Assembly: GCA_027603945.1 (NCBI GenBank)
Contig: JADIIU010000195.1
Span: 1 to 17,467, forward strand
Origin: Terramyces sp. JEL0728
Taxonomy: Eukaryota; Chytridiomycota; Chytridiomycetes; Rhizophydiales; Terramycetaceae
Length of the DNA stretch: 17,467 nt
Direction: 5' to 3'
Made by a program: the position numbers and the translations under genes. The notes under the pieces were generated by a model. It saw only the letters and a program-made list of their open reading frames with translations. It made no database searches and had not been told where the DNA came from. Shown here in pieces: positions 746 through 16,394 of the stretch. The first letter of the stretch is position 1; the number at the start of each line of letters is the position of its first letter.

Positions 746-1278
746 AACAAAGAATACGACACCATGCTTTTTATAATCTCCAAACCATGTGGTACCACTG
801 TTAAACGCTTGTACTAGCCACAGATTTTTCAAGGATCCACACTGTCACCATGCGTTAGAAGGAAGAGCAGATAGAAATATTTAGAAATATATTTAGCAGT
901 TCCAGCCAGTATCAAGCTTTTAAATTCTAGTACTGGAATGTTGAGGCAATGGAATTTTGTTGCAACAAGCAATTGACAATGAGGCGCACCAACATGAAAG
1001 AGATTCACATTCATCACTGGTCACAACAATGTAGATGACTCCATTGCAATCCAGATCCAAATAGATCTTTCTAAATGAACCAATCGTAGGATATTGAGGA
1101 TTTTAATTTCAATGATCGTGTAATCTAGTAAATAATTTAGCTTTATAATCCGCACTAACCTTCTAAATTCTAATTAACCGAGAGCTTGCAAAGTCAAGTC
1201 TAATTTCTTCGGTGGTATTCGGATAGTTAAAAAAGGAAAATCCCGACTTAACAACTCTCCAAAATTTTTAACAGAGAG
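746..1278. other. Region between Yippee and ankyrin genes, no resolved gene
   Basis: No clean gene is seen on either strand. The minus strand holds three overlapping open stretches between 829 and 1140. One contains LFHVGAPHCQLLVATKFHCL (within 1017-829). Another, in a different frame upstream, contains YLDLDCNGVIYIVVTSDE. They look protein-like but are not joined by any 19-22 nt GT...AG segment I could find. They could be a decayed gene, unrecognised exons, or chance. The 5' regulatory regions of both flanking genes must also lie here. Confidence 0.4.
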
Positions 1279-3648
1279 TTGCTTTCAAAGGATTTGTTAG
1301 TCGCAATATCCAGTCATTTGAATCTGACGGAATATCACCAATTCAGATTTTCATTTCGAAATACTATACCAGTGGAACCAGAATTTACGTTAACTTCCGT
1401 CAAAGAAAGTTTGAAAATATTAAAAGAAACCAAAGGGTTAAAGCTGAAAGGACAGCATTACGATTATTTGCTATCGATTTGGGACACCAATTTGCTCCCC
1501 AAGTGTTCAATTGGAAGAGAAAAACAGCTTGTAATGAAATGGGCAACAACAGAGAATTTGATTGACCCAGCTCTGATTTATGAATTTGCCAAACGCTGTG
1601 ATTTTACAAATATAGAGTTCACAAGGTATTTTTCATGTTAAATCCAGGATATTCATGAAAGCTTGTTTTATTGGCAGCGATTGCCTATTTGACTATACCC
1701 TACCAAACAGCTTGGATGTAAATAACGCAATGAGATTTGCCAGTGCAGGCGGACATTTTGGAATAATTAAAAAGCTGCTGGACAGTGGAAGATTGGATTT
1801 ACAATTGATGAAAACCAGCAGTTTTCCAATACTGGTTTCTAGAGGATACTTTGATATTGTTTTATTTATATGTAATAGAGTAGAGGGATGTGTGGATGCC
1901 AGAAATCTTCGGTTGGCTGTTAACGGCGGACATTACGAAATGACAAAATATTTTATTCAGCTCACTGATCCATCATTGGACAATAATTACTGTATAAGAT
2001 CAGCAATACGAAATTCACACACAAAGTTGGTTGCGCTGCTGCTGAATGATAATCGTGTCACACCCAGTTCTGATGGGTAAGTTGCTATTGATGATAGATT
2101 AAAATTTGCGATATCAAAGGGGTTTGTAGAAATAACAAAGCTACTACTTGACGATGGGCGATGTGCTGTGGATGGCTGTTTGAAATTGGCTGTGGATGCT
2201 GGAAATATCGATCTAGTGCACATGCTACTTGGTAAGAGCCCTTTAATCCAGAAACTGCTTATTACAAACAAAATTCAGTAATAATTGAAGAAATGGAAGT
2301 GGCTGCTCCTGCAATATGTCCTTTTGCTGATGGCATTCAGCCGAAATCTAGTCCAAACCCGTTTTCCAAAGAGAAGTCTAAAGTTACAAAGCATTATCCA
2401 TCTTCACCTCCATCATGTGCGTCAGACTTGAATGCATGTCAAAAAGAAAAGAATTCAGCGCTATTGAGTGCGATCAAAAAGAATCACAATGGCATATTTC
2501 ATCTATTAATATCCGACCCTTCAATTAATGCAGGTTCTTCAAATAATGCTTCTATTAGAGCGGCTATCAATACACAAAATATTCAAATGGTATCACGGTT
2601 ATTGGAAGACGAACAGGTAGATCCATCTTCCTATTCAAACTATTGCGTTTATCTGGCAATCAAGCTGAAAAACATTGAAATATTAACTCTTTTATTGGAC
2701 CATCCTGCAGTCAATCCCTTGTTCATGGAAAACGATGCAATAAGCTTGGCTGTTCGATGTGAAAATTTGGAAATTCTAAAGAAATTATTAATGGACGGCA
2801 GGGCAGATCCAGCAGCATTAAACCACACACCACTTAAACTTGCAGTGATGAGACAGTTGCCAGATTGTGTTGAATTATTATTAAACGACTTTAGGGTAGA
2901 TCCTCGAGCAGACTCTAGTTTTGCTTTGCGAGAGGCAGTTCGATTGCAAAATAGACAGGTCGTTGAAATACTGTTAAATGATGGAAGAGCATCACCCTGC
3001 GAATACGGAAATTACTGTATTATGGAGGCGTGCAAAACAGGAAATCTGGAAGTTGCTAAACTGCTAGTAAACGATAAGAGGGTAGATCCGGTATGCAATG
3101 ACAATGCGCCGATACGATTTGCGGTTGAGAGTGGAAACTTGGAATTAGTAAAGTATTTTTTGCAATTATCAAATGTTGATCCAAGTGCTGGCAACCAGGA
3201 TGCGATACACTCCAGTATAATACTCGGCAACTACGAAATATTCGAATTATTGCTGAAAGACAGTAGAGTAGATCCATCAACAAGAGAAGATGAAGGTTTA
3301 ATCAACGCAGTTGCTCGGAATTCATTCCAGATAATTCAAACTTTATTGCAAGACCCACGTATCAGCATCCAGTTGGACGACTATTACAGCTTTAGACTGG
3401 CGATACAATTACAAAACACAGAAATAGTAAAGCTATTTCTCAACTGTGACGATTTAGATCCAAATGCTGATGGTTCATTTCCCCTAAGGTATGCTTGCTA
3501 TGTGGGCAATATGGAAATACTAGAACTGCTATTACAAGATCAAAGGATAAAAATTCCAAAAAGTGCAGCAGCCTCAGCTACTGCTGGTGGTAACTTTGAA
3601 ATATTCGATTTATTAGTTAGTGATTGCAGATTTAAAATAAATAGTTGA
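1279..3648 (+). CDS. F-box-like ankyrin-repeat protein (4 exons, 3 mini-introns)
   Basis: Exons are 1279-1625, 1648-2076, 2098-2231 and 2252-3648, giving 2307 nt in frame and 768 residues. Removing three segments of 22, 21 and 20 nt joins four otherwise broken frames. Residues 1-30 (LSKDLLVAISSHLNLTEYHQ) resemble an F-box, suggesting an SCF substrate adaptor, though weakly. About 6 degenerate ankyrin repeats follow to residue ~303, then a Ser/Pro/Lys-rich linker at ~318-371. About 13 more repeats run to the C-terminus on a pattern like N..I..A....N.EI..LLL.D.RVDP. Ankyrin arrays bind proteins; the partner is unknown. The 5' end is unresolved: residue 1 is TTG, no ATG occurs for over 160 nt upstream, and an in-frame stop lies at 1249-1251. 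The next in-frame ATG is at 1534. Its 3' end faces that of the LeuRS gene 69 bp away. Confidence 0.75.
1626..1647 (+). other. Mini-intron, 22 nt (ankyrin gene intron 1)
   Basis: Begins GTATTTTT and ends TTAAATCCAG, phase 2. Without it the frame stops at the TAA at 1639-1641. With it EFTR joins IFMKACFIG and the ankyrin frame continues. TTAAA acts as the likely branch site, 5 nt before the end. Confidence 0.8.
2077..2097 (+). other. Mini-intron, 21 nt (ankyrin gene intron 2)
   Basis: Begins with a consensus GTAAGT and ends TTGATGATAG, phase 2. It contains the in-frame TAA at 2078-2080. Removal gives SSDG-LKFAISKG, whose repeat spacing matches the next repeat (VDG-CLKLAVDAG). Length is a multiple of 3, so the stop codon rather than frame is the main evidence. 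Confidence 0.75.
2232..2251 (+). other. Mini-intron, 20 nt (ankyrin gene intron 3)
   Basis: GTAAGAGCCCTTTAATCCAG, phase 1, with TTTAAT as a likely branch site. Retention leads to TAA at 2279-2281. Removal joins VHMLL to ETAYYKQN and leads into the long 3' exon. Confidence 0.8.
3636..3641 (+). terminator. Possible poly(A) signal just before the ankyrin stop codon
   Basis: AATAAA lies inside the coding end, 4 nt before the TGA at 3646-3648. It fits the pattern of the other genes but, being in an AT-rich coding stretch, is the least certain. Confidence 0.4.
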
Positions 3649-3717
3649 TTTAACAGGTTGGGCTAGGTTGCGAATTGCAAAAAATGAGACCTCATATCTC
3701 CATTATAAAAATACACT

Positions 3718-5887
3718 CTATATTAAAATATTGACAATCTTTTTGGATTTGTTGATGATTACTTTCTTGTGCTGCGCTAATTCAAGTTGGTCCAGCACTT
3801 TTTGTTGGATTTCTTCATCCGCAAGCCCATCCAGTTGGATCTCCTTTACTTGCTTTCCATTAACCATCACGTTAAATGTAGATTTCTCTTGCTCAACGGC
3901 TAGAGCGGTTGGGAACTCTAGACTACTACAAGGCTCAATCTGATTGTACAATTGCAATGCTGTTTCGGGTGCGAATATTGATAACATTTCCAGTAGCCTT
4001 TTCGTAGCTTCTGTGCTGCCATTAGTAGATAATTTTGCCGCCAGTTTCATTAACTCTGTGATTGCGAGATTAAATCGAAACTTTTCAATGTGGCTAGTTA
4101 CCTATTTTAGCTCTAATTACTTTTATGATTGCGCTATTTGCAATTGCGTCCACACTTGGATTTGAAGAAGGTGGCTGTTGGACTATTTCCCGCACTCTGT
4201 TCACGAATCTTTGCATTCCGACAATAGCGGTAGAGTCCCACGCCAGTTCATCTTGCGGTGGTGCCTTGTAAAGAATAAACAGTCTCGTAACATCAGTGCC
4301 ATATTGTAGAATCATGTCATGGGGATTAATTCCATTGAATTTGCTCTTGCTCATTTTCTCAAAAGTGACTTTAACAGAATTCTTGGTTGACTTTACCCGG
4401 GGCTGGCTATCGATGTATTCAATATCAGTGGAAGGGACGTATCTACTGGTTTGAGTACATTTGTAAGTTATTCCAGTCACCATTCCTTGGGTTAGTAATT
4501 GTTTGAATGGTTCGCCATTGGGTATATCGATCAAGTTTATATCTGTAAGGAATTTAGCAATAAATCTAGCGTACAGTAAATGCATAATTGAGTGTTCTAT
4601 TCCGCCGATATAGATATCTACCGGCAATCCTTGCACCTTGTCCTTTGCAATCAGCTGCGCATCATTGTGTGCATCTAGAAATCGAATCCAGTACCACGAG
4701 GAATCAACAAATGTATCCATGGTGTCAGTTTCATACTCGGCTTCACGGTTGCACCTACATTAATGAAACACTACTCTGGACATTTTGGTTTCTTTTGTTT
4801 ATCACGCAATCTTAGCGGCAAATCCTTTTCAGGAATAGGAACTGTGTTACAAGAAGGACAGTGAATGATTGGAATAGGAGTACCCCAGTTTCTTTGTCTT
4901 GACACCAACCAATCTCGCAACTGATATCTTACTACTGTTGGGCAATTGTCGCTCAAAAGTTCTCCCACACAATCCAGCGTGTTCTGCTGAATATATTTTA
5001 GATGCACAGGATCTGTATCTGTACCGATTTCACATCCTTCTTGCACAAAATTTGTCACATGAATTGGAATATTTTTGATTTCATCATTGGACGCATATAG
5101 CCCCGTGAATATACCTTCCAATCCTCCGCTTGGCTTCATTGAATTAATACAACCTTGAATTTCTTTAGACAATCCTTTGACCAAATGGTGTTGTGGCCCA
5201 ACTGCAATAAAATAACAGCTGCCTTTTCCTTCAACAAAGCAATCGAGTTTGAAATTTCCAACTTTAAAACGAACCAATTTGCTTGTTTTCGGTTTGATCC
5301 AATTCCTTTGCTGTTGCTTCACTGCATCTGGCCAATCCAATACATCCAAATCGTTAAACAATCTATCTGCGTATCTCGTTATCCTGAAATACCACTGCTT
5401 CAAGTACCTTTTTTCTACAAGCGCTCCGCTACGCTCTCCCCTTCCGTTTACCACTTGCTCGTTTGCCAGGACAGTTTCATCAACTGGATCCCAATTAACA
5501 ACGCTCTCTTTTTGATAAACCAATCCATTTTCATATAGTTTCAAGAATATATATTGTGTCCACTTGTAATATTTATCGTCGCTAGTTTTGAATTCCCTGT
5601 CCCAGCCAAAATTTATATTCATCTTTAGCAATTGATTCTTCATTTGCGCTATGTTTTGGTTGGTCCATTCTTCAGGGTCTTTGTTGTTGACTCTAGCTGC
5701 GTTTTCTGCAGGTAAGCCAAAGCTATCCCAGCCAATTGGGTGTTTTACTCTATGGTATCTAGACAAAACATCTGCAATTGTATAGACCCGCAAGTGCCCC
5801 ATATGTAGTAATCTTGTTAATCAATTTTTACCCCGAGGGATAGGGGAACATTGCCAATATATATTTTTTCATTTTTGGATTAGCCAT
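3718..5887 (-). CDS. Leucyl-tRNA synthetase, mitochondrial/bacterial type (4 exons)
   Basis: Exons on the minus strand are 5887-5832, 5812-4775, 4754-4121 and 4101-3718, giving 2112 nt and 703 residues. It charges tRNA-Leu, presumably in mitochondria. Seen: FPYPSGLLHMGHLRVY with the HIGH-box HMGH; GWDSFGLPAENAA; a zinc-type pair CPSC...CPEC; DTMDTFVDSSWYW; the KMSKS loop in EKMSKSKFNG; the anticodon-binding region with KVTSHIEKFRFNLAI; and the C-terminal end MVNGKQVKEI...KKIVNILI. Oddities: the CP1 editing domain is short and lacks the TTRPDT and HD.RD signatures, so editing is probably lost. Only 22 residues precede HMGH, against 40 or more usually, and no import signal is evident. An in-frame stop lies 8 codons upstream of the ATG. 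The preceding gene ends 37 bp upstream on the same strand. Confidence 0.92.
4102..4120 (-). other. Mini-intron, 19 nt (LeuRS intron 3)
   Basis: GTAATTAGAGCTAAAATAG, phase 0, branch-like GCTAAAA. Removal gives AIIKVTSHIEKFRFNLAI, matching the spacing of the bacterial LeuRS segment TI.KVTDDI....FN.AI. Retention shifts frame and stops within three codons of the intron end. Confidence 0.9.
4755..4774 (-). other. Mini-intron, 20 nt (LeuRS intron 2)
   Basis: GTAGTGTTTCATTAATGTAG, phase 2, branch-like ATTAAT. Retention gives TAG after CPE. Removal gives CPECNREAEYETDTMDTFVD, restoring the second Cys pair and the conserved segment of LeuRS. Confidence 0.93.
5813..5831 (-). other. Mini-intron, 19 nt (LeuRS intron 1)
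   Basis: GTAAAAATTGATTAACAAG, phase 2, branch-like GATTAAC. Retention gives an immediate TAA after FPYPSG. Removal gives FPYPSGLLHMGH, the conserved LeuRS HIGH region, so the boundaries are fixed by homology. Confidence 0.92.
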
Positions 5888-5920
5888 ATCAGTCAAAAAA
5901 GTACTTTTAATTCAAAACAA

Positions 5921-5926
5921 TTTATT
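5921..5926 (-). terminator. Poly(A) signal overlapping the stop of beta-lactamase-like copy 1
   Basis: The minus strand reads TGG-TAA-TAAA: AATAAA shares two bases with the TAA stop at 5927-5925. Confidence 0.6.
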
Positions 5927-7914
5927 ACCAGATACGGAATTGGACCAAATTCAAATTGACCAATTGAATCAATCCAATCAATTTGCAAACAACGAGTGCG
6001 ACAAGAATCCATCTGTCGTGCACTTTGACTTTCTTGAAGCAAGCGACAGCGGCAATAAGAGCGACTAAAGCAGCAGAAACAGTAAACAGGATCAACATTA
6101 CTTCTAAAGCTACAAGAATCGGACAGTCTGGCGAGGAGATACTTTGATTTGCGTAAAAGTGAATGATAATCCCTGCTAGGACGACTGAAAACAATGGGCT
6201 GAAGAGTGAAATAACGTCAATTAATTTTTGATATGTCGGCTTTGTTGGCACGTCATTGTTTAGCAGCGGTTCTTCTTCTTCCGCGATTGCTTTACTGGAT
6301 TTCCATCTTTTGAGGGCAGAGTACGCAAGGACACCCATCAAGATATGAGCTGCAAGTTCCATCACTAAACCGGCTTGGACAATAATGAGTTTGTCCAAAA
6401 AGGAGAGAGGATACGCCGTGGTAGTACCACCAATAGAAATGCGTGATACTTTACCATTTTCGAGTTGAACTGAGAGGCTTTTTGAATCATTCACCGGCTT
6501 ATATAATAAAATATTTTCCGGGAATGCTTTCTGGCTGTCGGACAACTGAATTTGATAATACCTTACTTTTTTTGTTGAGGTAGTCATAACAAGACTGTTT
6601 TCACCAGCAACAGGCTCAAAAGAAAAATATGACCCAAGCATGAAATATTTTATGATTCCGTTCCAAACCACTCGTTTGTTTCTAAATTCGCCCTTTAGTT
6701 AGAAAAGTTAAACCTTGATTTTTTGAGTAGCAGCAATATTTTCCAATGTTGCTTTTGCAGGAGTGAATACCCCAGAATCTGCACCTGATTCTTGAGGATG
6801 CAGGACTTTGAGGAAACTAGCCAAAGCAAGAGCGCGATATTGCAAATCAGGAGTGTTTACAAATACACCACCTTCGTTGAATTCAGGGATAATCCATGCT
6901 AAAGATGAGAAACCCATCAAATCACCACCTAGATTAGCAAACAGTACCTTTTGTCCAGACTTTAACTTTACCATGAGTTTCAAATTCCCATCCATTTCTG
7001 TATCCGTTTTCACCAAACCATAAATGATAATCCATCGGCGCTCTTGATTGATCAACAGTTTCTTGATGCTCGTAGATTCCTTTTCCATCTTGCAACAAAG
7101 AAGAAAAGAATTTTGCGACATCACCAATGCTGGACACTAAATCTCCAGATGCGTAATCATCAATATCGTAAGGTTCAAGTTTAGTTGAATGAGATTCAAA
7201 TGGAAAACACAAATCATTCAAATTGTCCTGTTGGTGTGTGAACCCGCTTGTCTTTATATCCAATGGTTTGAAAATAGCCCTTTTCAAATAGTCTCCAAGC
7301 AATTCTCCTGTAATTTCCTCAATCACTGCACCAAGTAAAGTCCATCCAGAGTTTGAATAGCTAGGGCCATTTTGAATACCTGGTGAGTTTATAAAGTTAG
7401 TCCAACATTTGGTAACTGTTTCTTTGTGTGACTTTGGGATATGCGGAAATACTACCGGCTTCTTTTTACTGATTCCTATTTCGTCAAAAGATGTCGTGTG
7501 TTGCAACAAGTCTTGAATTAGCAGGGTTTCGCCATCTAAATAAGGCTCGATCCAGGGTACATACTGCTGAACTGGCGCGGTCCTGTTTAGCAACCCTTGT
7601 TCAATCAGTTGAAAAGCGGTAGTTGCAGTGTACATTTTAGTGATGCTGGCAAATCTCCACAAATTCGTATCTGATGGCACACCTCTGACATTTCCTTCCA
7701 GATCATAACAGCTGCCATTAAAGAATTGGACCAATTTTTGATCGTTCCCTTCGTTTTTGAAAAACACAGCTGCAAAAGCGTCTGGATTTACAGGAGTATT
7801 TTCTTTAGCTTGAAGTACAAATTCATCCATCCACTTTGAGTTTAGCGACTTTTCAAAGTCTCCAAGTGCGCTCTTTCCGAGCAAGCTGGAAGCCAATAGA
7901 AGGAATTGAAGCAT
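5925..7914 (-). CDS. Serine beta-lactamase-like protein with C-terminal TM domain, copy 1
   Basis: Exons on the minus strand are 7914-6948, 6928-6714 and 6692-5925, giving 649 residues. The start is ATG at 7914. A signal peptide (MLQFLLLASSLLGKSALG) leads into a class C beta-lactamase/DD-peptidase-like fold: S-I-T-K at 90-93 (catalytic Ser/Lys), Y-S-N at 186-188, and a WTKGG segment as the third-motif candidate. Relatives in this broad family include esterases, LACTB-like proteases and peptidases, so the substrate cannot be named. The last ~200 residues hold about four hydrophobic segments: around LDKLIIVQAGLVMELAAHIL, SLFSPLFSVVLAGIIIHF, VALEVMLILFTVSAALVALI and WILVALVVCKLIGLIQLV. The catalytic domain is therefore probably outside the cytosol and membrane-tethered. 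Its paralogue lies at 10069-12050, head to head. TGACTCA and TGAGTAA occur ~50-65 bp upstream. Confidence 0.88.
6693..6713 (-). other. Mini-intron, 21 nt (beta-lactamase-like copy 1, intron 2)
   Basis: Begins GTTTAACT (a non-GTA 5' end) and ends TCTAACTAAAG, phase 0. The second codon of the retained intron is TAA. Removal gives TQKIKGEFRNKRVVWNGIIK, aligning with TQQVKGHFVNKRSVWHGATK of copy 2, which has an intron at the identical position. Confidence 0.93.
6929..6947 (-). other. Mini-intron, 19 nt (beta-lactamase-like copy 1, intron 1)
   Basis: GTACTGTTTGCTAATCTAG, phase 1, with a textbook-like GCTAAT branch site 5 nt before the end. Retention gives TAA inside the intron. Removal gives VWTKGGDLMGFSSLAW, aligning with VWTKGG-like IWTKGGAIAGFSSFAF of copy 2, which has no intron here. 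Confidence 0.93.
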
Positions 7915-7960
7915 TTTGGAAAGTTGCTTTGTGCTTTTCTTTCTGCTTTTTCACAACAGG

Positions 7961-7979
7961 TGACTCATTAGTTGAGTAA
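7961..7979. promoter_or_regulatory. bZIP-like sites upstream of beta-lactamase-like copy 1
   Basis: TGACTCA (7961-7967), a perfect AP-1/Gcn4-type palindrome, and TGAGTAA (7973-7979) lie 47-65 bp upstream of the ATG at 7914. TGAGTAA also recurs upstream of the three stress-protein genes. Confidence 0.4.
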
Positions 7980-8300
7980 AGACTGAATGCAAACTTTAAC
8001 CAATATTCGATTGAAATATTATATGGCAATGGTTATAATTGAGACATTGAGTCGAATCAGTGGATCAACATTTGGTTAATAGTAAGTCTCTTAATGAACA
8101 GCCGGAGTAATTTTAATGCCGAAAAATTATCACCAAAGAGATTTGGTGCAAAAGTCAAGTCTGATACCTGTGTTACAAATAACTATTTGAATATTGTTGT
8201 GCCATTTCGGCCAACTTAACACGCAGTGGAAAGTGCGAACTGCCGACTCATGCAAGAGCAGATAATACTGCATAATTAAAAACCATAAAATGAGCATAAT

Positions 8301-8326
8301 CACAAGGGCTTGGTGTAGCCCTTGTG
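8301..8326. repeat. Perfect inverted repeat, 10-bp arms and 6-nt loop
   Basis: CACAAGGGCT - TGGTGT - AGCCCTTGTG. A GC-rich hairpin in an AT-rich non-coding region. No poly-T tract or coding frame is attached, so its role is unknown. Confidence 0.6.
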
Positions 8327-8444
8327 GACAATAGGAAAGTGGCGTGTTTAGGATTGCAATGGTCTAGAGATTGAGTTGATATCATTTGCAGAGAGGCGTG
8401 CGAATGTAAAGGACCATGAGCGAATATTTTCACTTTATGTGAGC

Positions 8445-8458
8445 GGCATAATTATGCC
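8445..8458. repeat. Perfect 14-bp palindrome
   Basis: GGCATAATTATGCC reads the same on both strands. It could be a dimeric protein-binding site or chance; it lies 120 bp from the hairpin at 8301-8326. Confidence 0.45.
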
Positions 8459-9141
8459 AACCCTTTAAAGTTGTTTCCGCATCATTGAATGCTGGTGAGT
8501 CTTTGCGATATGTTAGGGATACTCATGGTGGAAAGGATTTGGGTACTGTCTAATGATAGATCCTAAAAACCAATCTGATTGTTCGTAGACGGGGCTTAAA
8601 CAAGTTACTTGAGGCAATATTAGCGCGTATTCACTCCAAACCGCATTAGTTTGATGATGTAATAGAATCTAGTGGTATACTGATGTAGCCCAGCGCTTTC
8701 TATATTTTTCGGGTACAAGGGGTATGGCATGTTACAGAAAAATGTGCGTTTCAACTTTGTGGAAATTCAAAGGACTGTCCCTGCCAATAAAATTCTTGAC
8801 TTGCTCGTGTAACTGTACTCATCCATCGATAATCATTTAAATTTATCAATTGGATACCAACAGATGAAACACATTGGACCAATTAATAGCTTGTCATTCA
8901 TGAACGCCTGAAGCTTTTTTCAAGCCCAGAAATTATTCGCCACATTCTTTATTTTCAAATATTATCAAACCTCGGCGTATTAGAGCTAGTTGGTGTGCAG
9001 AACAGGCAGGATAGATCTAGGCTCTCGTATGGCCGCAATGTCAAGTACTAGATTCGATAGTACGCAATATTTGCAGATTTGAGTTTTTTTCCACATTAGC
9101 CAGAGAAGGGACCTAGGGGGTTGAGCCAGAAATGAAACTCT

Positions 9142-9149
9142 TATTTAAA
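9142..9149 (+). promoter_or_regulatory. TATA-like box of the Lys-rich secreted protein gene
   Basis: TATTTAAA lies 30 bp before the ATG at 9179, implying a very short 5' UTR. The antiporter gene has the same arrangement. Confidence 0.45.
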
Positions 9150-9178
9150 CAACGGGTTAGAACCATCAAAGAATCAAA

Positions 9179-9793
9179 ATGATTTTCTCAGTCAAATCTC
9201 TTGTCAATATCCTTGCTCTTGCTGCTTATGTTTCTGCCATTGCCCTACCAAATGTAAATGATGAACCATCTTTGGCTATCCGCGATTCCCAAGTTGCCGA
9301 ATCTAGCTTCTTGAACTTGCTTGCAAAGAGAGATCCTACCCCAGACCCAAAAAAGAAAAAGAAGAAGGGAAAGAAAGGAAAGAAGGCCAAAAAAGGCAAA
9401 AAGAAGGGAAAGAAAGGAAAGAAAGGAAAGAAGGGAAAGAAAGCCAAGGAAGCTGCCGCCGCTGCTGCTGCCGCCAACAATGCCAACAATAATGCTGCTG
9501 CAGATAATGGAGCAGCTAACAATGGTACAGCTGTAGATGCTGGAGCAGCTAATAACGGCACTGCTATTGATGCTGGAGCAGCTAACAATGGCACAGCCGT
9601 CGATTCTGGTGCTAATGCAGCTGACGCCAATGCTGGAGATGCCGCTGCAAACGGGGCTGCTGACAATGGTGCATCTAATGCATCCAACGGTGATGCAGCA
9701 GCAGCAGATAATGGAGCCAATGCAAATGCTGCTGATGCAAATGCAGCTAACGATGCAAATGCAGCTAACGATGCAAATGGTGCAGAAAATTAA
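9179..9793 (+). CDS. Secreted Lys/Gly-tract and Ala/Asn/Asp-repeat protein
   Basis: 204 residues from ATG 9179. Residues 1-22 (MIFSVKSLVNILALAAYVSA...) form a clear signal peptide. K50-R51 in LLAKRDPTPDP is a Kex2-type processing site, so 23-51 is probably a propeptide. Residues ~58-90 are almost only Lys and Gly with some Ala (KKGKKGKK repeats). Residues 91-204 are low-complexity Ala/Asn/Asp/Gly, including three 11-residue units (AANNGTAVDAG type, DNA 9512-9610, exact 33-nt period) each with an N-G-T glycosylation sequon, and DANAAN repeats at the end. The mature product would have a strongly basic head and an acidic, possibly glycosylated tail. It may act at the cell wall or on polyanions outside the cell; that is inference and no family is recognised. 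A TATA-like box lies 30 bp upstream. Confidence 0.85.
   Translation: MIFSVKSLVNILALAAYVSAIALPNVNDEPSLAIRDSQVAESSFLNLLAKRDPTPDPKKKKKKGKKGKKAKKGKKKGKKGKKGKKGKKAKEAAAAAAAANNANNNAAADNGAANNGTAVDAGAANNGTAIDAGAANNGTAVDSGANAADANAGDAAANGAADNGASNASNGDAAAADNGANANAADANAANDANAANDANGAEN
9512..9610 (+). repeat. Three in-frame 33-bp repeats in the secreted protein gene
   Basis: Units 9512-9544, 9545-9577 and 9578-9610 each begin GCAGCTAA and encode AANNGTA(V/I)D(A/S)G. Synonymous differences between units show they are not brand new. Confidence 0.8.
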
Positions 9794-9798
9794 ATGTA

Positions 9799-9804
9799 AA
9801 TAAA
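9799..9804 (+). terminator. Poly(A) signal of the secreted protein gene
   Basis: AATAAA begins 5 nt after the TAA stop at 9791-9793. Confidence 0.6.
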
Positions 9805-10068
9805 GTGTAAACTAAATTATTCACAAAATATTACGAGTTATAACCCTATATGTTGAATCGCCAATACAAGTTGATGTCACTCGAATAATTCACAAAAGTA
9901 ATCATTGCCCTTCGCATCATGAAATACGATATTCATCCAAAAGATACAAGAGGAGCACTGTATTGGAGATATTCAGGGACTTGCAACTGGTTTGAATGAA
10001 ACAAGGAGTTAAATGCCAACTCGTCACTAAGCGAATTAGAAATTGTGCAAAGTTTAATTTTTACCGAA

Positions 10069-12050
10069 ATGCTGGTTGCAAATCTGCTAATTGCAATCGC
10101 GCATACCAAGAAACCCGTGGATTTCGAAACAGAGTTGAAATCAAGATGGTTTAAAGAATTTCAAAAGCAAGTAGATCTGACCAACACTTATCCGGAAGCT
10201 TTCAGCGCAGTTTTTTACAAAAAAGAAGGTCAGGAAATGTTTGTGGAATTTCATAATGGTTCATGTTACACTCTCGGTGGACAATCCAAAGGTATACCCA
10301 AGGAAGATACAGTATGGAGAATTGGCAGCGTTACCAAGATGTACACTGCAACTGCCGCTTTCCAATTGATTGAAAAGGGATTACTAAATAGAACTGCACC
10401 AGTTGCAGATTACTTACCATGGCTGCAAGATAGTGTACAAGGACAAAATATTTTGATCCAGGATTTATTGCAACACACAACTTCATTTGATGAGCATGGA
10501 CTCTGGAATAAATGGCCAGTTGTTTTCCCCCATCCTCCTACTTCTCATAAAGATAGCTTTATCCGGTATACTACAGATTATTTAGACCATGTTGGTGTTG
10601 CTGGCGGTCCGAGTTATTCAAACCATGGCTGGGTAATGCTGGGTGCTGTTGTGGAGGAAATAACTGGTGAAAAACTTGGTGATTATCTCCAAACGAATGT
10701 ATTCAAGCCGTTGGGAATCAAATCCAGTGGGTTTTCATACCAACAAAGGAATTTAAACGATTTGTGTTTTTCTACTGGTGCTCTTGCCAATAGGGAACCG
10801 TTCGATGTAGAAGGGTATGCTACTGGTGATATGATATCCAACCCAAAAGATGTGTTGCGCTTCTTTACTGCACTATTGAACAATGGAAAAGAGCTTTTTG
10901 GATCTGCAGACACAGTCAAAGGAATGAAAACTCCCATGTATTACCATGACTGGTTTGGCGAAAATGGATTTATTAATGGATTTGAATACCAGCAACATGG
11001 CAGTATTAAGATTTGGACGAAAGGCGGGGCTATTGCAGGGTTTTCATCGTTTGCTTTCATAATCCCAGAATTCAACGAGGCTGGAGTATTCTTTAGCTCG
11101 CCTTTAATTCACCATTATTCTAGAGCCTTGCATTCGTTCCTTTCAATTCTCCATCCCAAAGAATTGGGATCAGAGTCTGGAATATACACATTTGCTGAGC
11201 TAACTCCTGAAAATATAGCGGCAACACAACAAGTCAAGGTAATCTGTCTATAACACAGGGACACTTTGTAAACAAGCGATCTGTTTGGCATGGAGCTACC
11301 AAGTATTTTCTGATGCCTTTTTCTCGATTCTCAATTAGACCAAAAGCAAATTCTAATCAAATTTCTGCTGTCCTTGGAAATTTAGAAATTGATTTGCAAC
11401 TGGCTGAAAAGGTCGACAAATCAAACCCGGTTCCACCAAATATCCTTTTATACCAAGACCTGAAACGAGCTTTGACAATTTCAGTGGTATTTCATCACAA
11501 GAGGATAAGCAAAGTGGTTGTATCCGGTAATTCCCAAGGCACACAATCAACTCATTACCCAAAATCAATTTTGGATAACTATCTACTGGTTCAAATAGGG
11601 TTATTTTTGAATTTATGTGCTCATATTTTGGTGTTCGTACTTGCTTTCTTTGCAATCAAGAGGTATGTAAAGTCAAAATCTGTTGACGATTCTGAATCTG
11701 ATGAAGCAGTACCATTGATCAACCAGCAACCAACACATAACGTATACCAAAAGATTGTTGACATCCTCTCTGTCATCACGGCATTATTTAGTTTGGTATT
11801 TTTCACAGTCCTTGTTCGTCTGCTCAATAGTATTGTATCGATGGATGACAAACCTAAATTCATAGTAGGTGAATTGGCGATATTGCTATTTATTATTTTT
11901 GTCGGGCTGATTTCGCTGGTAGCTGGAGTAGGGTGTGCAAGAAAAACCAAGCTTGCTGATCGTTGGTACATTCTTTTGCTTGCATTTTTACAGTTATTTG
12001 GTTTGATTCAGGTTCTCAATCTGAACCTCGTTCAATTTCGAGTATGGTGA
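10069..12050 (+). CDS. Serine beta-lactamase-like protein with C-terminal TM domain, copy 2
   Basis: Exons 10069-11238 and 11259-12050 give 653 residues. The frame opens at a GTG at 10045, but the first ATG is 10069, which yields a short hydrophobic leader (MLVANLLIAIAHTKK). Motifs match copy 1: S-V-T-K at 87-90, Y-S-N at 183-185, IWTKGG, then a C-terminal region with about four hydrophobic segments (YLLVQIGLFLNLCAHILVFV, IVDILSVITALFSLVFFTVL, LAILLFIIFVGLISLVAGVG, YILLLAFLQLFGLIQVL). Both copies end VQFR(I/V)W. The two are clearly homologous along the whole length, including the membrane part and intron 2, but this copy lacks the 19-nt intron at WTKGG. They are arranged head to head, 2.15 kb between starts, so the duplication involved an inversion. 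The substrate is unknown. Confidence 0.88.
11239..11258 (+). other. Mini-intron, 20 nt (beta-lactamase-like copy 2)
   Basis: GTAATCTGTCTATAACACAG, phase 0, branch-like TATAAC. Retention gives V-I-C-L-stop. Removal gives TQQVKGHFVNKRSVWHG, in register with copy 1, whose intron 2 sits at the same codon boundary. Confidence 0.93.
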
Positions 12051-12195: not shown

Positions 12196-12201
12196 TTTAT
12201 T
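12196..12201 (-). terminator. Poly(A) signal overlapping the stop of Usp 1
   Basis: The minus strand reads CAATAAAG: AATAAA contains the TAA stop at 12199-12197. Confidence 0.6.
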
Positions 12202-12682
12202 GTGGAGGGACTACAATTACAGGCACAACGGAATTGTGAATAATATGATTAGAAATGCTTCCCATAAACACCTGTTCAACTTTTCCCAATCTCCTCTTTC
12301 CAATTACAATAAGATCAGGTTGCTCAATCCTCAACTGTTCATCAATGGCTTTCTTTGGATTACCAGGAATAATAACGCCTTTCACATGGATATGTCCAAC
12401 ATTAATTACCGCAGCAAAGGTTTTGACAAACTGGAAAGCTGCTTTTTCATGTTGCTCTTCTAATTCCTTGATTGCGTCCGCATAAGCTCCACTTCCAATC
12501 ATTGCAATTTCCGATGCGATATCTTTGTATACGTGGAATAGAATTACTAGATCGGTTGGCTTGATTAGATTTTCCTTTGCCCACCGGATTACCTGTTCAG
12601 ACCGGTCTGATTTATCGATAGGAATGAATATTTTACGCTCTGGTTTGAATTCTGTTTCTGACATGGGTGGTATTTCTTGCAT
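12197..12682 (-). CDS. Universal stress protein (UspA family) 1
   Basis: 161 residues from ATG 12682; a second ATG at residue 7 (12664) could also serve. One complete Usp domain: beta1 RKIFIPIDKSDRSEQVIRWA, LVILFHVY, then HVKGVIIPGNPKKAIDEQL, PDLIVIGKRRLG and the end MGSISNHIIHNSVVPVIVVP. The GKR...G-S-(I/V)-S stretch corresponds to the ATP-binding loop G-x-x-G-x9-G-S of ATP-binding Usps, here in a variant form. Such proteins are cytosolic, often nucleotide-binding and stress-induced; a precise role is not known. It is first of three same-strand copies (107 bp to the next). TGAGTAA sites lie 35 and 72 bp upstream. Its 3' end faces that of beta-lactamase-like copy 2. Confidence 0.92.
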   Translation of the reverse strand: MQEIPPMSETEFKPERKIFIPIDKSDRSEQVIRWAKENLIKPTDLVILFHVYKDIASEIAMIGSGAYADAIKELEEQHEKAAFQFVKTFAAVINVGHIHVKGVIIPGNPKKAIDEQLRIEQPDLIVIGKRRLGKVEQVFMGSISNHIIHNSVVPVIVVPPQ

Positions 12683-12716
12683 GGGTTTTTGTAGGGAAGA
12701 TTTTTAGTAACAGTGG

Positions 12717-12760
12717 TGAGTAATTATTGCTAATAAAAGCAAATGGGTGATAATGAGTAA
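12717..12760 (-). promoter_or_regulatory. Paired TGAGTAA sites upstream of Usp 1
   Basis: TGAGTAAT at 12717-12724 and TGAGTAA at 12754-12760 (TTACTCA in the gene's direction) lie 35 and 72 bp upstream of the ATG. They resemble AP-1/Yap-type bZIP half-sites. Confidence 0.45.
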
Positions 12761-12785
12761 ACTATCGAAATGCTAGCATCATGAA

Positions 12786-12791
12786 TTTATT
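12786..12791 (-). terminator. Poly(A) signal overlapping the stop of Usp 2
   Basis: The minus strand reads TAATAAATT: AATAAA starts within the TAA stop at 12792-12790. Confidence 0.6.
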
Positions 12792-13233
12792 ATGGACAAA
12801 CAGCAACTGGAATGTGTGCAGTGTTCAGAACATGAGAAGACACTGAACCCAGCAACAACCGAGATACCGGATTCAATCCGCTTCTCTTTCCCATAACTAC
12901 CAAATCAATATCCTCCTTCTTAATCGTATCATCAATAAGGACCTTGATATTTCCACTTTGAATAATACCACGACAATTGTATCCCATATCAGTTAGTGTC
13001 TTTATATGCTTCTCCAATAGCTCTTGCGCTACTTTTTGGTTTTCATCCGCTAATGCAAGCATAGCTTCCTGATACTTTCCAGTCAAAATCGAATTTGATT
13101 GATCGTAGACAGAGTAATACACATGGAATAGGATTATTTCATCAGATTTGGTTAGTATTGTTGATGCGAATTTGATTACATGAGCAGCTGTTTCTGTGTT
13201 GTCAATTGGGATTAGCACCCTCCTCGATTGCAT
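12790..13233 (-). CDS. Universal stress protein (UspA family) 2
   Basis: 147 residues from ATG 13233; the shortest of the three because it lacks an N-terminal extension. The Usp fold is complete: RRVLIPIDNTETAAHVIKFA, EIILFHVYYSVYDQ, CRGIIQSGNIKVLIDD, DLVVMGKRSGLNPVSRLLLG then SVSSHVLNTAHIPVAVCP. It is the most divergent of the three, and unlike them it has the classical SGL...LLLGSVS loop seen in bacterial and plant relatives. It may bind ATP (inference). A TGAGTAAT site lies 36 bp upstream and a short tandem repeat 60-128 bp upstream. Confidence 0.92.
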   Translation of the reverse strand: MQSRRVLIPIDNTETAAHVIKFASTILTKSDEIILFHVYYSVYDQSNSILTGKYQEAMLALADENQKVAQELLEKHIKTLTDMGYNCRGIIQSGNIKVLIDDTIKKEDIDLVVMGKRSGLNPVSRLLLGSVSSHVLNTAHIPVAVCP

Positions 13234-13268
13234 TTTGAGAAAAAGTCTAAATCACGCGTTATTGATTG

Positions 13269-13276
13269 TGAGTAAT
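13269..13276 (-). promoter_or_regulatory. TGAGTAAT site upstream of Usp 2
   Basis: 36 bp upstream of the ATG at 13233, in nearly the same place as the proximal site of Usp 1. Confidence 0.45.
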
Positions 13277-13292
13277 GATTAATATATTGATT

Positions 13293-13361
13293 GACAAGCT
13301 AATCAGCATTATTAATGACAAGCTAATCCTGCATTATTAATGACAAGCTAATCCTGCATTT
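13293..13361. repeat. Tandem repeat of ~25 bp, nearly 3 copies
   Basis: Units start with GACAAGCTAATC at 13293, 13317 and 13342. The first is 24 bp (one base shorter), the second 25 bp and the third partial. The repeat lies in the Usp 2 upstream region, between Usp 2 and the end of Usp 3. Confidence 0.8.
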
Positions 13362-13414
13362 CCACTTTGTGTCTGGAAAACTAGCAGATCACTACAAAAA
13401 CCAAATAATTCTTG

Positions 13415-13420
13415 TTTATT
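13415..13420 (-). terminator. Poly(A) signal overlapping the stop of Usp 3
   Basis: The minus strand reads TGAATAAAC: the last base of the TGA stop starts AATAAA. Confidence 0.6.
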
Positions 13421-13884
13421 CAAGGAACAATCAAAACTGGGATATCGCGAGTGTTCAATACATGGTTAGAAACACTCCCCATAAATATTTGTTTAACTTT
13501 ACCCAAATCTCTCTTTCCCATAACAATCAAATCAGGTTGCTCCTTATCAAGCAGTTCATCAATCAATTTCTTGACCTTTCCTGCTCCCAACACTCCTTTT
13601 ACGTGAAAACTAGTCAACTCGTTCGCATAAGTGGTTAACAAAGATTTGGATGCAGTTTGGAATTCGCTATTGTATTTTTGAACGGTTTCCTTGTTCCCGC
13701 CACCTGGTAGCTCGTCGCTTGCTAATTTGTGAGCGTTGAATAGGATTATTAGGTCGCCATCACGGAGGATATTCTTTTTAGCCCAGGAAATTACGTGTGG
13801 TGTGCGTTCAGAGTTGTCAACTGGAATGAAAACTTTACGTTTTCCTACTGCCGAAGTGTCGATTACTGTCGAAAACGTAGCCAT
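13420..13884 (-). CDS. Universal stress protein (UspA family) 3
   Basis: 154 residues from ATG 13884. A complete Usp domain follows a ~15-residue leader: KRKVFIPVDNSERTPHVISW, DLIILFNAHK, FHVKGVLGAGKVKKLIDELL, PDLIVMGKRDLGKVKQIFMG then SVSNHVLNTRDIPVLIVP. It is closest to Usp 1 (shared AKKN/AKEN helix end, GKR-LGKV-Q-FMGS loop), so 1 and 3 look like the more recent duplicates with Usp 2 between them. The three probably arose by local duplication and may share control, since TGAGTAAT also lies 70 bp upstream here. Confidence 0.92.
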   Translation of the reverse strand: MATFSTVIDTSAVGKRKVFIPVDNSERTPHVISWAKKNILRDGDLIILFNAHKLASDELPGGGNKETVQKYNSEFQTASKSLLTTYANELTSFHVKGVLGAGKVKKLIDELLDKEQPDLIVMGKRDLGKVKQIFMGSVSNHVLNTRDIPVLIVP

Positions 13885-13953
13885 GGCTGTTCTTGGTGAG
13901 ATTTTTTGGTATTTATACCAGACAAGTCACATACTGTCACAAAATACTAATAA

Positions 13954-13976: not shown

Positions 13977-15827
13977 TTATAACTCGTTTAATATTTTTTT
14001 CAGTTCTTCAAGATCGACATCTTTGGATTCGGGATATTCTTGCCAGACCTCTACTTGTTTGAGAATACGGTCTCGCTTTAATCTAAAGTGGTTTTGAACT
14101 ACTTCTTTGAAATTGCCGGGTGGATTGACCAGTTGACCAATCATTGCGTGTTTTACAACATTGACCCTGACATTTCCATTGTAAGATTTACTTTCGGGAG
14201 TATCTACAGGCTCGCCATATCCAGGTTCATTGAAATACGGTCTGTTGACGAAAATCATTGACTGGATTGAAATAATCACTTGCAGCAATGTTGATTTGCC
14301 AGGAATCCACTGGTTTGAGGACCAGGTATTTAGCACCGATAAACATACTTTTCCATTATTGTACAGGTTTGGATTAGCTCTCCATGTTCCGTTGCCTGTA
14401 GTTTTATAAGTAAATTTAGGTGGTGCGAGTGGATAGGTATAAGGCAGTACGATATCAAATAGAAAGACTCCATTAGCATACGGAGTTCCTTCTGGTCCAA
14501 TCAAACACAATTGCATAACGTGCATCTTTTCTTCGTCAACTCGCAGAAAGGCACTCGTATTGTAGTCAATTGGAATGGAATTTGACAAGGTAGCAATTTC
14601 TTTTGCAATAATCTTTGTTCGCACCTCATTGCCATTTTCATATTCGACCATTTTTTCTTGTGGTAAATCCAATTCCTGCATAGCAAAGCCAAGTGGAGAC
14701 ATGGTTTGGATGTAATGCGAAATTGTTTTTTCATTCGGCAATGCCATTTCGACATCATATTCGTGCTTTGCAAAGTTGGTTACTGCATCTGAAGAGTCTT
14801 CAATCAGCGTTTCATCATTTTCATCGCTGCAAAAGGACAAGATTTCTTCAGTAAGCAATACAAAATCTTTGTATTCGTTTTGGTTGTTTTTAGTCAGCTT
14901 ATTGTACTGCACCAGTTGACTGTCCAGCTGTCTAATCATCTTGTAGAGAGAGTCTTTGCTGTACTCTATCATCTGTCCATGCAGCCCAGAATTTGTGTTT
15001 AGATCCATATATAGGTATGGTCTTAAATCATCATGCTTTGCAATTAAAGCAAGTATTTTTAGCCAAGTGATAAACAGCTTTGGTCTGGTGTTTAAATCAT
15101 GAAGCGATGCGATTTTAAAGGCTGATTTGAGGCAAGGCCCCAATATTGATACAGCGAGCAGGCTTTTCAGTGCGCTGTGAGGGGTATAGTCAAAAGTATA
15201 CTCTCCTCTATCTGTTGATGGAATGTATTGGCGCATAGCAACCAAAACATCAATAACGTTGTCATCTCTACTAGAGTCAACAATATTCTGATCATCAGTG
15301 ATATCTTTAAATACATCCCCAATGGAGATATGGCAAGCATATCCTACCCCACTATCGCCCTTTACATATGTGACATTTTCCACTCTGATATTTTCAATAT
15401 TATTGGCTTCGGTTTGAATCCCTTCCAAGAACATCAGATAATGATAAACAGCAACAAAGGCGGAATCAGGACAGTGAAATAGCTTCCCTTCATCTGTTTG
15501 AAATTGAAAGTCGTCCTCATCAGAGCCGTCCATTTCGCAATCATAACTTTCGGAAAATAAATCTCCACAAAACCTGCAGATATTGGTTTGGCAGTTGAAG
15601 CAATACTGTCCCTTTGAAACCAGGTACATTTCATCTTGAAACTTTGAGAGTGACAATGCTTTGGGTTGAAGGAGCGCAATTGATTTCTGGTGCGTATCTC
15701 CGCATTTGGAGCATTTATAACTCTCCACAGTAATATTTTGTATTGCCTGTTGAACCGCCTCCATGTAATATGAAAGAATTTTCCTCCCTTTTATGCCAAC
15801 CTGAAAATGAGTCACATGATCAATCAT
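13977..15827 (-). CDS. BIRC6/UBE2O-like ubiquitin-conjugating enzyme (E2)
   Basis: 616 residues from ATG 15827 (a GTG two codons earlier is not used). It transfers ubiquitin, or a related modifier, through a catalytic cysteine. The UBC fold spans about 390-600: GPEGTPYANGVFLFDIVLP, YPLAPPKF, NPNLYNNGKVCLSVLNTW with catalytic Cys495, then WIPGKSTLLQVIISIQSMI and PYFNEPGY. The NPNLYN.GKVCLS and PYFNEPGY blocks are typical of large BIRC6/UBE2O-type E2s, not small Ubc4/5-type ones. Near the N-terminus C39/C42 and C76/C79/C84/C87 form CxxC pairs that could bind zinc, followed by an acidic stretch (MDGSDEDDF). The middle (130-390) is helical and unassigned. No BIR domain is seen and it is far shorter than BIRC6. 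The gene has no intron. Confidence 0.9.
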   Translation of the reverse strand: MIDHVTHFQVGIKGRKILSYYMEAVQQAIQNITVESYKCSKCGDTHQKSIALLQPKALSLSKFQDEMYLVSKGQYCFNCQTNICRFCGDLFSESYDCEMDGSDEDDFQFQTDEGKLFHCPDSAFVAVYHYLMFLEGIQTEANNIENIRVENVTYVKGDSGVGYACHISIGDVFKDITDDQNIVDSSRDDNVIDVLVAMRQYIPSTDRGEYTFDYTPHSALKSLLAVSILGPCLKSAFKIASLHDLNTRPKLFITWLKILALIAKHDDLRPYLYMDLNTNSGLHGQMIEYSKDSLYKMIRQLDSQLVQYNKLTKNNQNEYKDFVLLTEEILSFCSDENDETLIEDSSDAVTNFAKHEYDVEMALPNEKTISHYIQTMSPLGFAMQELDLPQEKMVEYENGNEVRTKIIAKEIATLSNSIPIDYNTSAFLRVDEEKMHVMQLCLIGPEGTPYANGVFLFDIVLPYTYPLAPPKFTYKTTGNGTWRANPNLYNNGKVCLSVLNTWSSNQWIPGKSTLLQVIISIQSMIFVNRPYFNEPGYGEPVDTPESKSYNGNVRVNVVKHAMIGQLVNPPGNFKEVVQNHFRLKRDRILKQVEVWQEYPESKDVDLEELKKILNEL

Positions 15828-16394
15828 TTGCACAGCAACAGAATGCTAGATCATTCAAGAGATAAACAATAATAAAACACTGCAAGGCAGTAGCAATAAT
15901 TGCAGACTATACACCATCTGTATATGAAATTAGTTACCAACGATATGGGCAGATTACTTTTACTGCAAAAGAAGGCTGATTCCGTCGTAGCATATCCTGT
16001 ATAATATAAAATGCCAAGTGCAGCTGTAAAGGATTACGCACGCCTCCCAGAGGATCTCTATTGATATACCAATAATGAGATTGCTAGTATTATGGTGTGA
16101 TTCAATTTAATCGTTATTTCTTTTGTATTAATTATTTTCTTGAGTATTTTATTAGTCTCGACGTTTGGTTGGGAACGGATTTGAATTGCAGAGTTATCTT
16201 TTAAATTCTTTCTAAGCCTGAATATCAATAATCGGTCCAGTATAGCGATTCATCTGAAATCTGTATTATCAACACTATTCCAAACACAGCATTCGGGAAA
16301 ATTTAGTGTCAGCAATTGAATCCAGTATGGCTAATTTCTTTCATGATTTTCTATCCCCACTGTTTATTCCATTTTTATTGTACTTTTTTTTTCA
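15828..16394. other. Intergenic region upstream of the E2 gene
   Basis: No gene, RNA or repeat is recognised. On the minus strand a 20-nt GT...AG segment with a TAAT-like core (GTAACTAATTTCATATACAG, ending near 15914) looks like a possible mini-intron in a 5' leader. The frames it joins soon stop, so no coding exon is supported. Confidence 0.35.

What the first reader, a model, noticed from the sequence alone, without database searches (positions are those of the whole stretch)
1626..11258. Ultra-short spliceosomal introns (19-22 nt) in four genes
Nine GT...AG segments of 22, 21, 20, 19, 20, 19, 19, 21 and 20 nt interrupt four genes, and removing each restores the frame. Five junctions are fixed by strong homology: three in LeuRS at conserved blocks, and two in the beta-lactamase-like copies by their mutual alignment. 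Fungal introns are usually 50-100 nt. Introns near 20 nt are known mainly from some ciliates and the chlorarachniophyte nucleomorph. A genome with all visible introns in this range would be a notable minimal-intron system.
Basis: partly seen in the sequence, partly recalled or inferred. Interest (0 to 1): 0.92.

Follow-up and report, generated by a model that had tools for sequence, protein, structure and literature searches.

The report
Chytrid fungus with 20-nucleotide introns
In a chytrid fungus, the introns examined are almost all only 19 to 22 nucleotides long, near the shortest known in any organism, so its splicing machinery has to work with signals packed almost end to end.

Summary
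All nine GT...AG segments are there, 19-22 nt long. Deposited protein models match removal at four; relatives' proteins support two that the deposited models miss; the three in the ankyrin gene rest on frame and repeat pattern.

In 200 kb of another contig a self-trained gene finder, with half its length prior on 25-300 nt, put 99 of 116 introns at 18-23 nt (controls 7 of 43, 6 of 66) and showed no excess of longer ones. Genome-wide, GTAATT + TTAAYNNTAG spaced as a 19-22 nt intron occurs 251 times, against 6 for the reversed pattern and 7 when spaced as 49-52 nt. Held-out loci agree (35 of 43). U2AF2 carries a 19-nt intron inside a conserved domain. Two near-identical gene copies carry a 21- and a 20-nt version of one intron.

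Anatomy: GUAAUU-like 5' site, YURAY branch site with A usually 14th or 15th, 5-6 nt to the last G. Comparable systems are known in Stentor, mikrocytids and a nucleomorph; my searches listed none in a fungus. No RNA data were available; U1 and U6 were not found.

The parts
1626..1647 (+). 22-nt intron in ankyrin-repeat gene, GTATTT...TTAAA..CAG
   Evidence: sequence and frame; no deposited model seen
2077..2097 (+). 21-nt intron in ankyrin-repeat gene, GTAAGT...TTGAT..TAG
   Evidence: sequence, frame and restored ankyrin pattern by eye
2232..2251 (+). 20-nt intron in ankyrin-repeat gene, GTAAGA...TTAAT..CAG
   Evidence: sequence and frame
1252..3648 (+). ankyrin-repeat gene hosting three introns (ORF limits; true start not fixed)
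   Evidence: Pfam Ank_2 2.3e-46 on the ORF 2236-3648; spliced frame open
4102..4120 (-). 19-nt intron 3 of LeuRS, GTAATT...CTAAA..TAG
   Evidence: deposited HDV01_002723 protein matches removal; relatives align poorly here
4755..4774 (-). 20-nt intron 2 of LeuRS, GTAGTG...TTAAT..TAG
   Evidence: gap-free across the junction with solved LeuRS 6q89; deposited protein matches
5813..5831 (-). 19-nt intron 1 of LeuRS, GTAAAA...TTAAC..AAG, inside MFPYPSG|LLHMGH
   Evidence: gap-free with solved LeuRS 6q89 and with Boothiomyces sp. JEL0866 and Gorgonomyces proteins; missed by the deposited Terramyces model
3718..5887 (-). bacterial/mitochondrial-type leucyl-tRNA synthetase gene hosting three introns
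   Evidence: Pfam, solved structures E 4.5e-130, homologues; start codon read
6693..6713 (-). 21-nt intron in first beta-lactamase-like gene, GTTTAA...CTAAC..AAG
   Evidence: removal gives KIK|GEFRNKRVVWNGIIKYF, one open frame; paralogue P0121 and Boothiomyces P0122 align through it; deposited P0124 drops a longer piece
6929..6947 (-). 19-nt intron in first beta-lactamase-like gene, GTACTG...CTAAT..TAG
   Evidence: deposited P0124 (HDV01_002724) protein matches removal
5925..7914 (-). beta-lactamase-like (PF00144) membrane protein gene hosting two introns
   Evidence: Pfam 2.8e-25; P0124; spliced frame open
10069..12050 (+). second beta-lactamase-like membrane protein gene hosting one intron
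   Evidence: Pfam 3.7e-36; P0121; spliced frame open
11239..11258 (+). 20-nt intron in second beta-lactamase-like gene, GTAATC...ATAAC..CAG
   Evidence: deposited P0121 (HDV01_002726) and Boothiomyces P0122 join here as QVK|GHF and KVK|GHF

Best explanation
These are U2-type spliceosomal introns, and in Terramyces sp. JEL0728 nearly all introns seen have one stereotyped form of 19-22 nt (mode 20): GUA(A)(U)(U), about 4-5 free nt, YURAY branch site, 1-2 nt, then mostly UAG. Most likely mechanism: SF1 and U2 snRNA recognise an ordinary branch site, and the AG is read 5-6 nt downstream with no polypyrimidine tract. The branch A lies only 13-14 nt downstream of G+1, so the U6/5'SS and U2/branch helices must lie almost end to end and the lariat loop is only 14-15 nt. 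Shown here: intron structure, length distribution, position of the branch motif, conserved U2, presence of SF1 and U2AF2. Inferred: removal from RNA, use of the predicted branch A, the order of recognition, and any remodelling of early complexes that permits so short a distance.
For: Species: deposited HDV01_002726 and HDV01_002724 and HDV01_002723 are window proteins; lineage. Junctions. Length peak without motifs: 19-22 nt: 32 candidates against 3, 4 and 8 in controls; 16 against 2, 2, 3, 0. With trained motifs: (99 of 116 at 18-23 nt), held-out (35 of 43, in 16 of 22 stretches). Whole assembly: 251 against 6 and 7; base-composition expectation about 5. Anatomy: of 59 introns with a scorable branch motif (65 examined), branch A is 14th-15th in 48 and 5-6 nt from the last G in 50. 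Two conserved genes in the 200 kb align gap-free across 3 of 4 predicted junctions each (Vps1-type dynamin; ethanolamine-phosphate cytidylyltransferase); the fourth of each lies outside or in a gapped part of the alignment. Near-identical copies L022/L023 carry 21 and 20 nt versions of one intron and give the same spliced end.
Against: No RNA was available. U1 (where no control genome rang either, three hits that look like coding sequence) and U6 (the two weak hits are copies of one region that codes for a protein end) were not found. SF1 is interrupted by a 21-nt insert with two stops, but it does not fit the pattern cleanly: the only GT-AG excision under 36 nt that leaves no stop is 15 nt; a 21-nt GC-AG excision also fits by eye. 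The sample is one contig plus 22 stretches; the profiles were trained on short introns, which disfavours long introns with other signals (the motif-free runs, do not have this bias). Donor statistics after training are partly shaped by the model; the untrained set has 16 introns (+5 T 7, G 4, C 3, A 2). The finder called 3 of 9 window introns.
Confidence: 0.95

Rival explanations
1. Sequencing or assembly errors, or decayed genes: the segments are artefacts and the restored frames are fitted after the fact.
For: Deposited models do not use two of the nine segments.
Against: Errors would not carry a GT...TTAAY..TAG signature with fixed spacing 251 times against 6 in the reversed control, or sit gap-free at junctions of conserved proteins, or interrupt U2AF2 with the same signature.
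Confidence: 0.01
2. Two-class system: ultra-short introns are one class and a substantial class of ordinary 40-150 nt introns also exists but was missed.
For: Some predicted introns of 25-300 nt remain: 17 of 116, 7 of 43. A few may be real; not all were explained.
Against: They are not more frequent than with false boundaries: 17 against 29 and 56; 24 against 31, 26, 29 and 28 at 41-200 nt; 7 against 6 and 10. Several begin and end with complete short introns around a skipped exon. The 49-52 nt spacing occurs 7 times in the assembly, reversed control 2; by eye four of the seven hold a 20-nt intron-like sequence at their 3' end.
Confidence: 0.06
3. The segments are kept in the mRNA and bypassed during translation (frameshifting, hopping or stop readthrough).
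For: None beyond the lack of RNA data.
Against: GT-AG ends and a branch motif that matches canonical U2; lengths fall in all three classes modulo 3. Deposited proteins of this and a related strain are modelled as spliced.
Confidence: 0.01
4. Excision by a non-spliceosomal route (tRNA-splicing type endonuclease and ligase, or IRE1-like).
For: Short introns removed without the spliceosome are documented elsewhere (start of the abstract of PMC5435141, seen in the listing).
Against: GT-AG and YURAY at fixed distance, with U2, SF1 and U2AF2 present, and no other intron class detected for the spliceosome to serve.
Confidence: 0.01

Closest known systems
Stentor coeruleus (15-16 nt introns; PMC9505925: outline, sections 2.1 and 2.5, and passages seen)
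   Same: One narrow length class genome-wide, AU-rich introns, GUA start, 5-nt tail after the branch A; its most abundant intron begins GUAAUU, the consensus found here; U2AF1 and U2AF2 are listed as present in a table passage.
   Different: 4-5 nt shorter; branch A at 10th-11th instead of 14th-15th; no strong branch consensus in Stentor, a clear YURAY here; a ciliate, not a fungus.
Chlorarachniophyte nucleomorph (18-21 nt introns, as stated in PMC10245619, section 7 read)
   Same: Almost the same length range.
   Different: A relic nucleus of an endosymbiont with extreme genome reduction; here a fungal nuclear genome with a 15 Mb assembly.
Mikrocytids (Mikrocytos mackini and P. canceri, 16-17 nt introns; PMC10245619, section 7 read)
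   Same: Tiny introns of very uniform length.
   Different: 224 introns and a highly reduced spliceosome in an intracellular parasite; here a projected several thousand introns (rough).
Ordinary fungal introns (for example Cryptococcus neoformans, mean 63 bp; PMC8476143, section 14 read)
   Same: GT-AG ends; short (YURAY branch site in fungi in general is recalled).
   Different: About three times longer. That section of a 644-genome survey names no fungus with a mean near 20 nt.

Membership tests
Uniformly ultra-short U2-type spliceosomal intron systems | GT-AG boundaries whose removal restores conserved proteins | tested here: met
   SF1 is an unclear case
Uniformly ultra-short U2-type spliceosomal intron systems | single narrow length class, most introns under 30 nt, genome-wide | tested here: met
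   samples; whole assembly; not a complete annotation
Uniformly ultra-short U2-type spliceosomal intron systems | branch A at fixed position close to the 3' end | tested here: met
   48 of 59 at 14th-15th nt, 50 of 59 at 5-6 nt from the last G; motif only, no lariats
Uniformly ultra-short U2-type spliceosomal intron systems | major-spliceosome snRNAs present | tested here: inconclusive
   U2 found; U1 and U6 not found; U4 and U5 not searched genome-wide
Uniformly ultra-short U2-type spliceosomal intron systems | segments absent from mature RNA | not testable with these tools
   no RNA data held
Minor (U12-type) introns | RTATCCTT 5' site and TCCTTAAC branch site (recalled consensus) | tested here: not met
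   donor is GTA(A)(T)(T), branch YTRAY
Ordinary fungal introns (50-100 nt) | length peak at 50 nt or more | tested here: not met

The most novel reading that the evidence does not exclude
Terramycetaceae run a remodelled spliceosome in which the intron is read as one composite signal of about 20 nt. The 5' site has shifted from GUAAGU to GUAAUU, giving up the usual +5 G:U1 pair, which would require an altered U1 or a U6-led recognition of the 5' site; and the early complexes accept a branch A 13-14 nt from the 5' site, where human B complexes are estimated to need about 52 nt. The same donor letters open the most abundant Stentor intron, suggesting that ultra-short introns force a common solution.
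Probability: 0.35. Interest if true: 0.9.

Novelty: new variant of a known kind. Interest (0 to 1): 0.78.

Why it matters
Human spliceosomes are estimated to need about 52 nt between 5' splice site and branch site unless the complex changes shape (PMC6692369, passages); here the distance is 13-14 nt, in a fungus. That would give splicing biochemistry a fungal system near the physical minimum, with an intact branch-site consensus, to set beside yeast and Cryptococcus. There is also a practical side: deposited gene models of this strain, and apparently of Boothiomyces macroporosus, are truncated or mis-joined at such introns, so published proteomes of this family probably contain false proteins. 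A gene finder or read mapper that allows no intron of 20 nt or less would miss 76 of the 115 short introns predicted.

Tried and rejected
Codon-only scoring with a strict retained-frame rule gave no signal and excluded most lengths divisible by three; replaced by a stop-based rule and a gene-model search. The first whole-genome pattern (GTAAGT...AG) matched 374 times, its reversed control 723 times, and was dropped as a count; its listed sites pointed to the branch motif. U6 by covariance model and by two patterns: the pattern gave 200 matches up to 3 mismatches against 154 in its control, best one read by eye as coding; none; the covariance-model hits are coding. U1 by covariance model none, by a loop pattern three matches against three in its control. 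A second copy of window 1500-7000 was sought and not found. Rfam scan of the window and 120 of the 200 kb of C1 at gathering thresholds: nothing. I first wrote that SF1 holds a clean 21-nt GT-AG intron; one search did not bear that out. I first placed one intron at 6690-6710; two searches gave 6693-6713. Literature: search listings; passages or named sections of PMC9505925, PMC10245619, PMC8476143, PMC6692369, PMC5364385, PMC10639083 and PMC13391722; a find in PMC9926174 gave no match. I recall a 2022 PNAS genome study of early fungi that may include this strain; it is not held and was not read.
Full report
What the window is. Three proteins of the window are in public databases as HDV01_002726 and HDV01_002724 and HDV01_002723 of Terramyces sp. 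JEL0728, a chytrid fungus of the order Rhizophydiales. The closest listed relatives are Boothiomyces sp. JEL0866 and B. macroporosus. The assembly held here has 15.0 Mb in 231 contigs, and the window is contig C195.

The nine segments. Searches used wrong limits for one or two of them; one search gives the final ones. Junction evidence differs by gene. LeuRS: intron 1 sits in MFPYPSG|LLHMGH and intron 2 before CNREAEYETDTMDTF; both align without gap at the junction to the solved LeuRS 6q89. The deposited protein matches removal of introns 2 and 3 but begins at MGHLRV, so it lacks exon 1. At intron 3 the relatives align poorly. Beta-lactamase-like genes: 11239-11258 and 6929-6947 agree with the deposited proteins. 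At 6693-6713 the deposited protein lacks a longer piece, but the paralogue and a Boothiomyces protein align through KIK|GEFRNKRVVWNGIIKYF. Ankyrin gene: open frame and restored repeat pattern only.

Length distribution. I took 200 kb of contig C1. With no motif beyond GT and AG, candidate introns between coding-like flanks peak at 19-22 nt: 32, against 3, 4 and 8 for GT-GA, GT-AC and GT-TG. A gene-model search with a flat length prior gave 16 at 19-22 nt against 2, 2, 3 and 0 for four false boundary pairs, and no excess at 41-200 nt (24 against 31, 26, 29, 28). After training splice-site profiles and giving 25-300 nt half of the prior, 99 of 116 introns were 18-23 nt; with GT-AC and GC-AG boundaries 7 of 43 and 6 of 66 fell there, while 25-300 nt held 17, 29 and 56. 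The profiles came from short introns, so long introns with other signals would be disfavoured in that run; the motif-free runs do not share this bias. With 0.98 of the prior on short introns, 115 of 123 were 18-23 nt; I use that run only for density. On held-out sequence (the window and 21 loci, 83 kb, some of them overlapping or near-identical copies; L025, L035 and L037 left out because they lie in the training stretch or the window) 35 of 43 were 18-23 nt, in 16 of 22 stretches, against 3 of 12 and 1 of 13 with false boundaries. Several of the remaining long predictions begin and end with complete short introns around a skipped exon; others stay unexplained. The finder called 3 of the 9 window introns, so it undercounts.

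Whole genome. GTAATTN{3,6}TTAAYNNTAG, an intron of 19-22 nt, occurs 251 times in the assembly (123 forward, 128 reverse); the reversed control occurs 6 times. The same motifs spaced as a 49-52 nt intron occur 7 times, control 2, and by eye four of the seven hold a 20-nt intron-like sequence at their 3' end (two of these four are near-copies). A base-composition expectation for the four short spacings is about 5. Extrapolating the C1 density gives about 8,600 introns in the assembly, a rough figure from one contig. The predicted density is 0.86 introns per kb of coding sequence, against a mean of 3.93 for two Chytridiomycota in a 2021 survey (PMC8476143, passage; the two densities were not measured the same way).

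Anatomy. In 65 introns from C1 position +3 is A in 64, +4 A in 42, +5 T in 37 and G in 11, +6 T in 42. In the 16 introns of the untrained run +5 is T 7, G 4, C 3, A 2, and in the nine window introns T 5, A 2, G 2. The branch motif is YTRAY; of 59 scorable introns the branch A is the 14th or 15th nt in 48, and 5-6 nt from the last G in 50. That leaves no room for a polypyrimidine tract between branch and AG.

Machinery. U2 snRNA is canonical at 140 bits, with GUGUAGUAUC intact. SF1 (60% identity over 122 aa, with two stops inside) and U2AF2 (48%) are present. SF1 is interrupted by a 21-nt insert with two stops; its limits are unclear, since the only stop-free GT-AG excision under 36 nt is 15 nt, and a 21-nt GC-AG excision also fits by eye. 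U6 and U1 were not found. The two weak U6 matches lie in two copies of one region that codes for a protein end. I take this as missing or divergent sequence in the assembly, not as absence.

A natural indel. Loci L022 and L023 (contigs C199 and C111) are near-identical. Inside one intron they differ by one T, 21 against 20 nt; it is the only indel before the stop codon, and the spliced protein end is the same in both.

Relatives. In B. macroporosus the deposited beta-lactamase-like protein ends ...KVKVL at the position where Terramyces has intron 11239-11258, and its LeuRS begins at MGHLRV like the deposited Terramyces model. This suggests shared introns that defeat gene finders there too. Intron lengths in Boothiomyces could not be measured.

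Mechanism. Shown: structure, spacing, U2, SF1, U2AF2. Inferred: ordinary two-step splicing in which the U6/5'SS and U2/branch helices are almost adjacent. A human study estimates that about 52 nt are needed between 5' site and branch site without altering the B complex, with Smu1 and RED relieving shorter distances (PMC6692369, passages). Whether Terramyces has these two factors was not tested. Loss of the +5 G preference predicts either a changed U1 5' end or weaker reliance on U1; both are untested.

Known systems. Stentor has 15-16 nt introns with branch A at position 10-11 and no strong branch consensus; its most abundant intron begins GUAAUU (PMC9505925). Mikrocytids have 16-17 nt and the chlorarachniophyte nucleomorph 18-21 nt (PMC10245619). 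A section of a 644-genome fungal survey names no fungus with such short introns (PMC8476143, section 14). Eight literature searches listed no paper that I recognised as reporting this in Terramyces or another fungus; the lists are capped, and most subscription papers and preprints are not in the library. Some of these introns are implicit in deposited gene models, so the data are public even if the phenomenon is not described.

Verdict. What remains is RNA confirmation and the question of how the spliceosome does it.

Noticed in passing
   Followed up: partly
window 5813-5831 and 6693-6713: Deposited Terramyces models HDV01_002723 and HDV01_002724 do not fit the sequence evidence at these introns; B. 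macroporosus HK103_006585 and HK103_006586 look truncated at the corresponding places.
   Followed up: partly
L044, minus strand, SF1 match 1884-1501: The SF1 gene is interrupted by a 21-nt insert with two stops that is not a typical GT-AG intron; candidates are a 15-nt GT-AG or a 21-nt GC-AG intron.
   Followed up: partly
L022:1501-1606 and L023:1501-1605: The only U6 covariance-model hits (27 bits) lie over a protein-coding gene end; U6 and U1 were not found in the assembly.
   Followed up: partly
window 9181-9793: ORF whose product begins with a hydrophobic stretch, then a run of KKGK-like repeats and an Ala/Asn/Gly-rich tail.
   Followed up: no
window 12197-13926: Three consecutive small ORFs on the minus strand look alike by eye; the middle one matches universal stress protein PF00582.
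   Followed up: no
window 13977-15845: Ubiquitin-conjugating enzyme 70% identical to a Boothiomyces protein deposited as BIRC6-like; one uninterrupted ORF.
   Followed up: no
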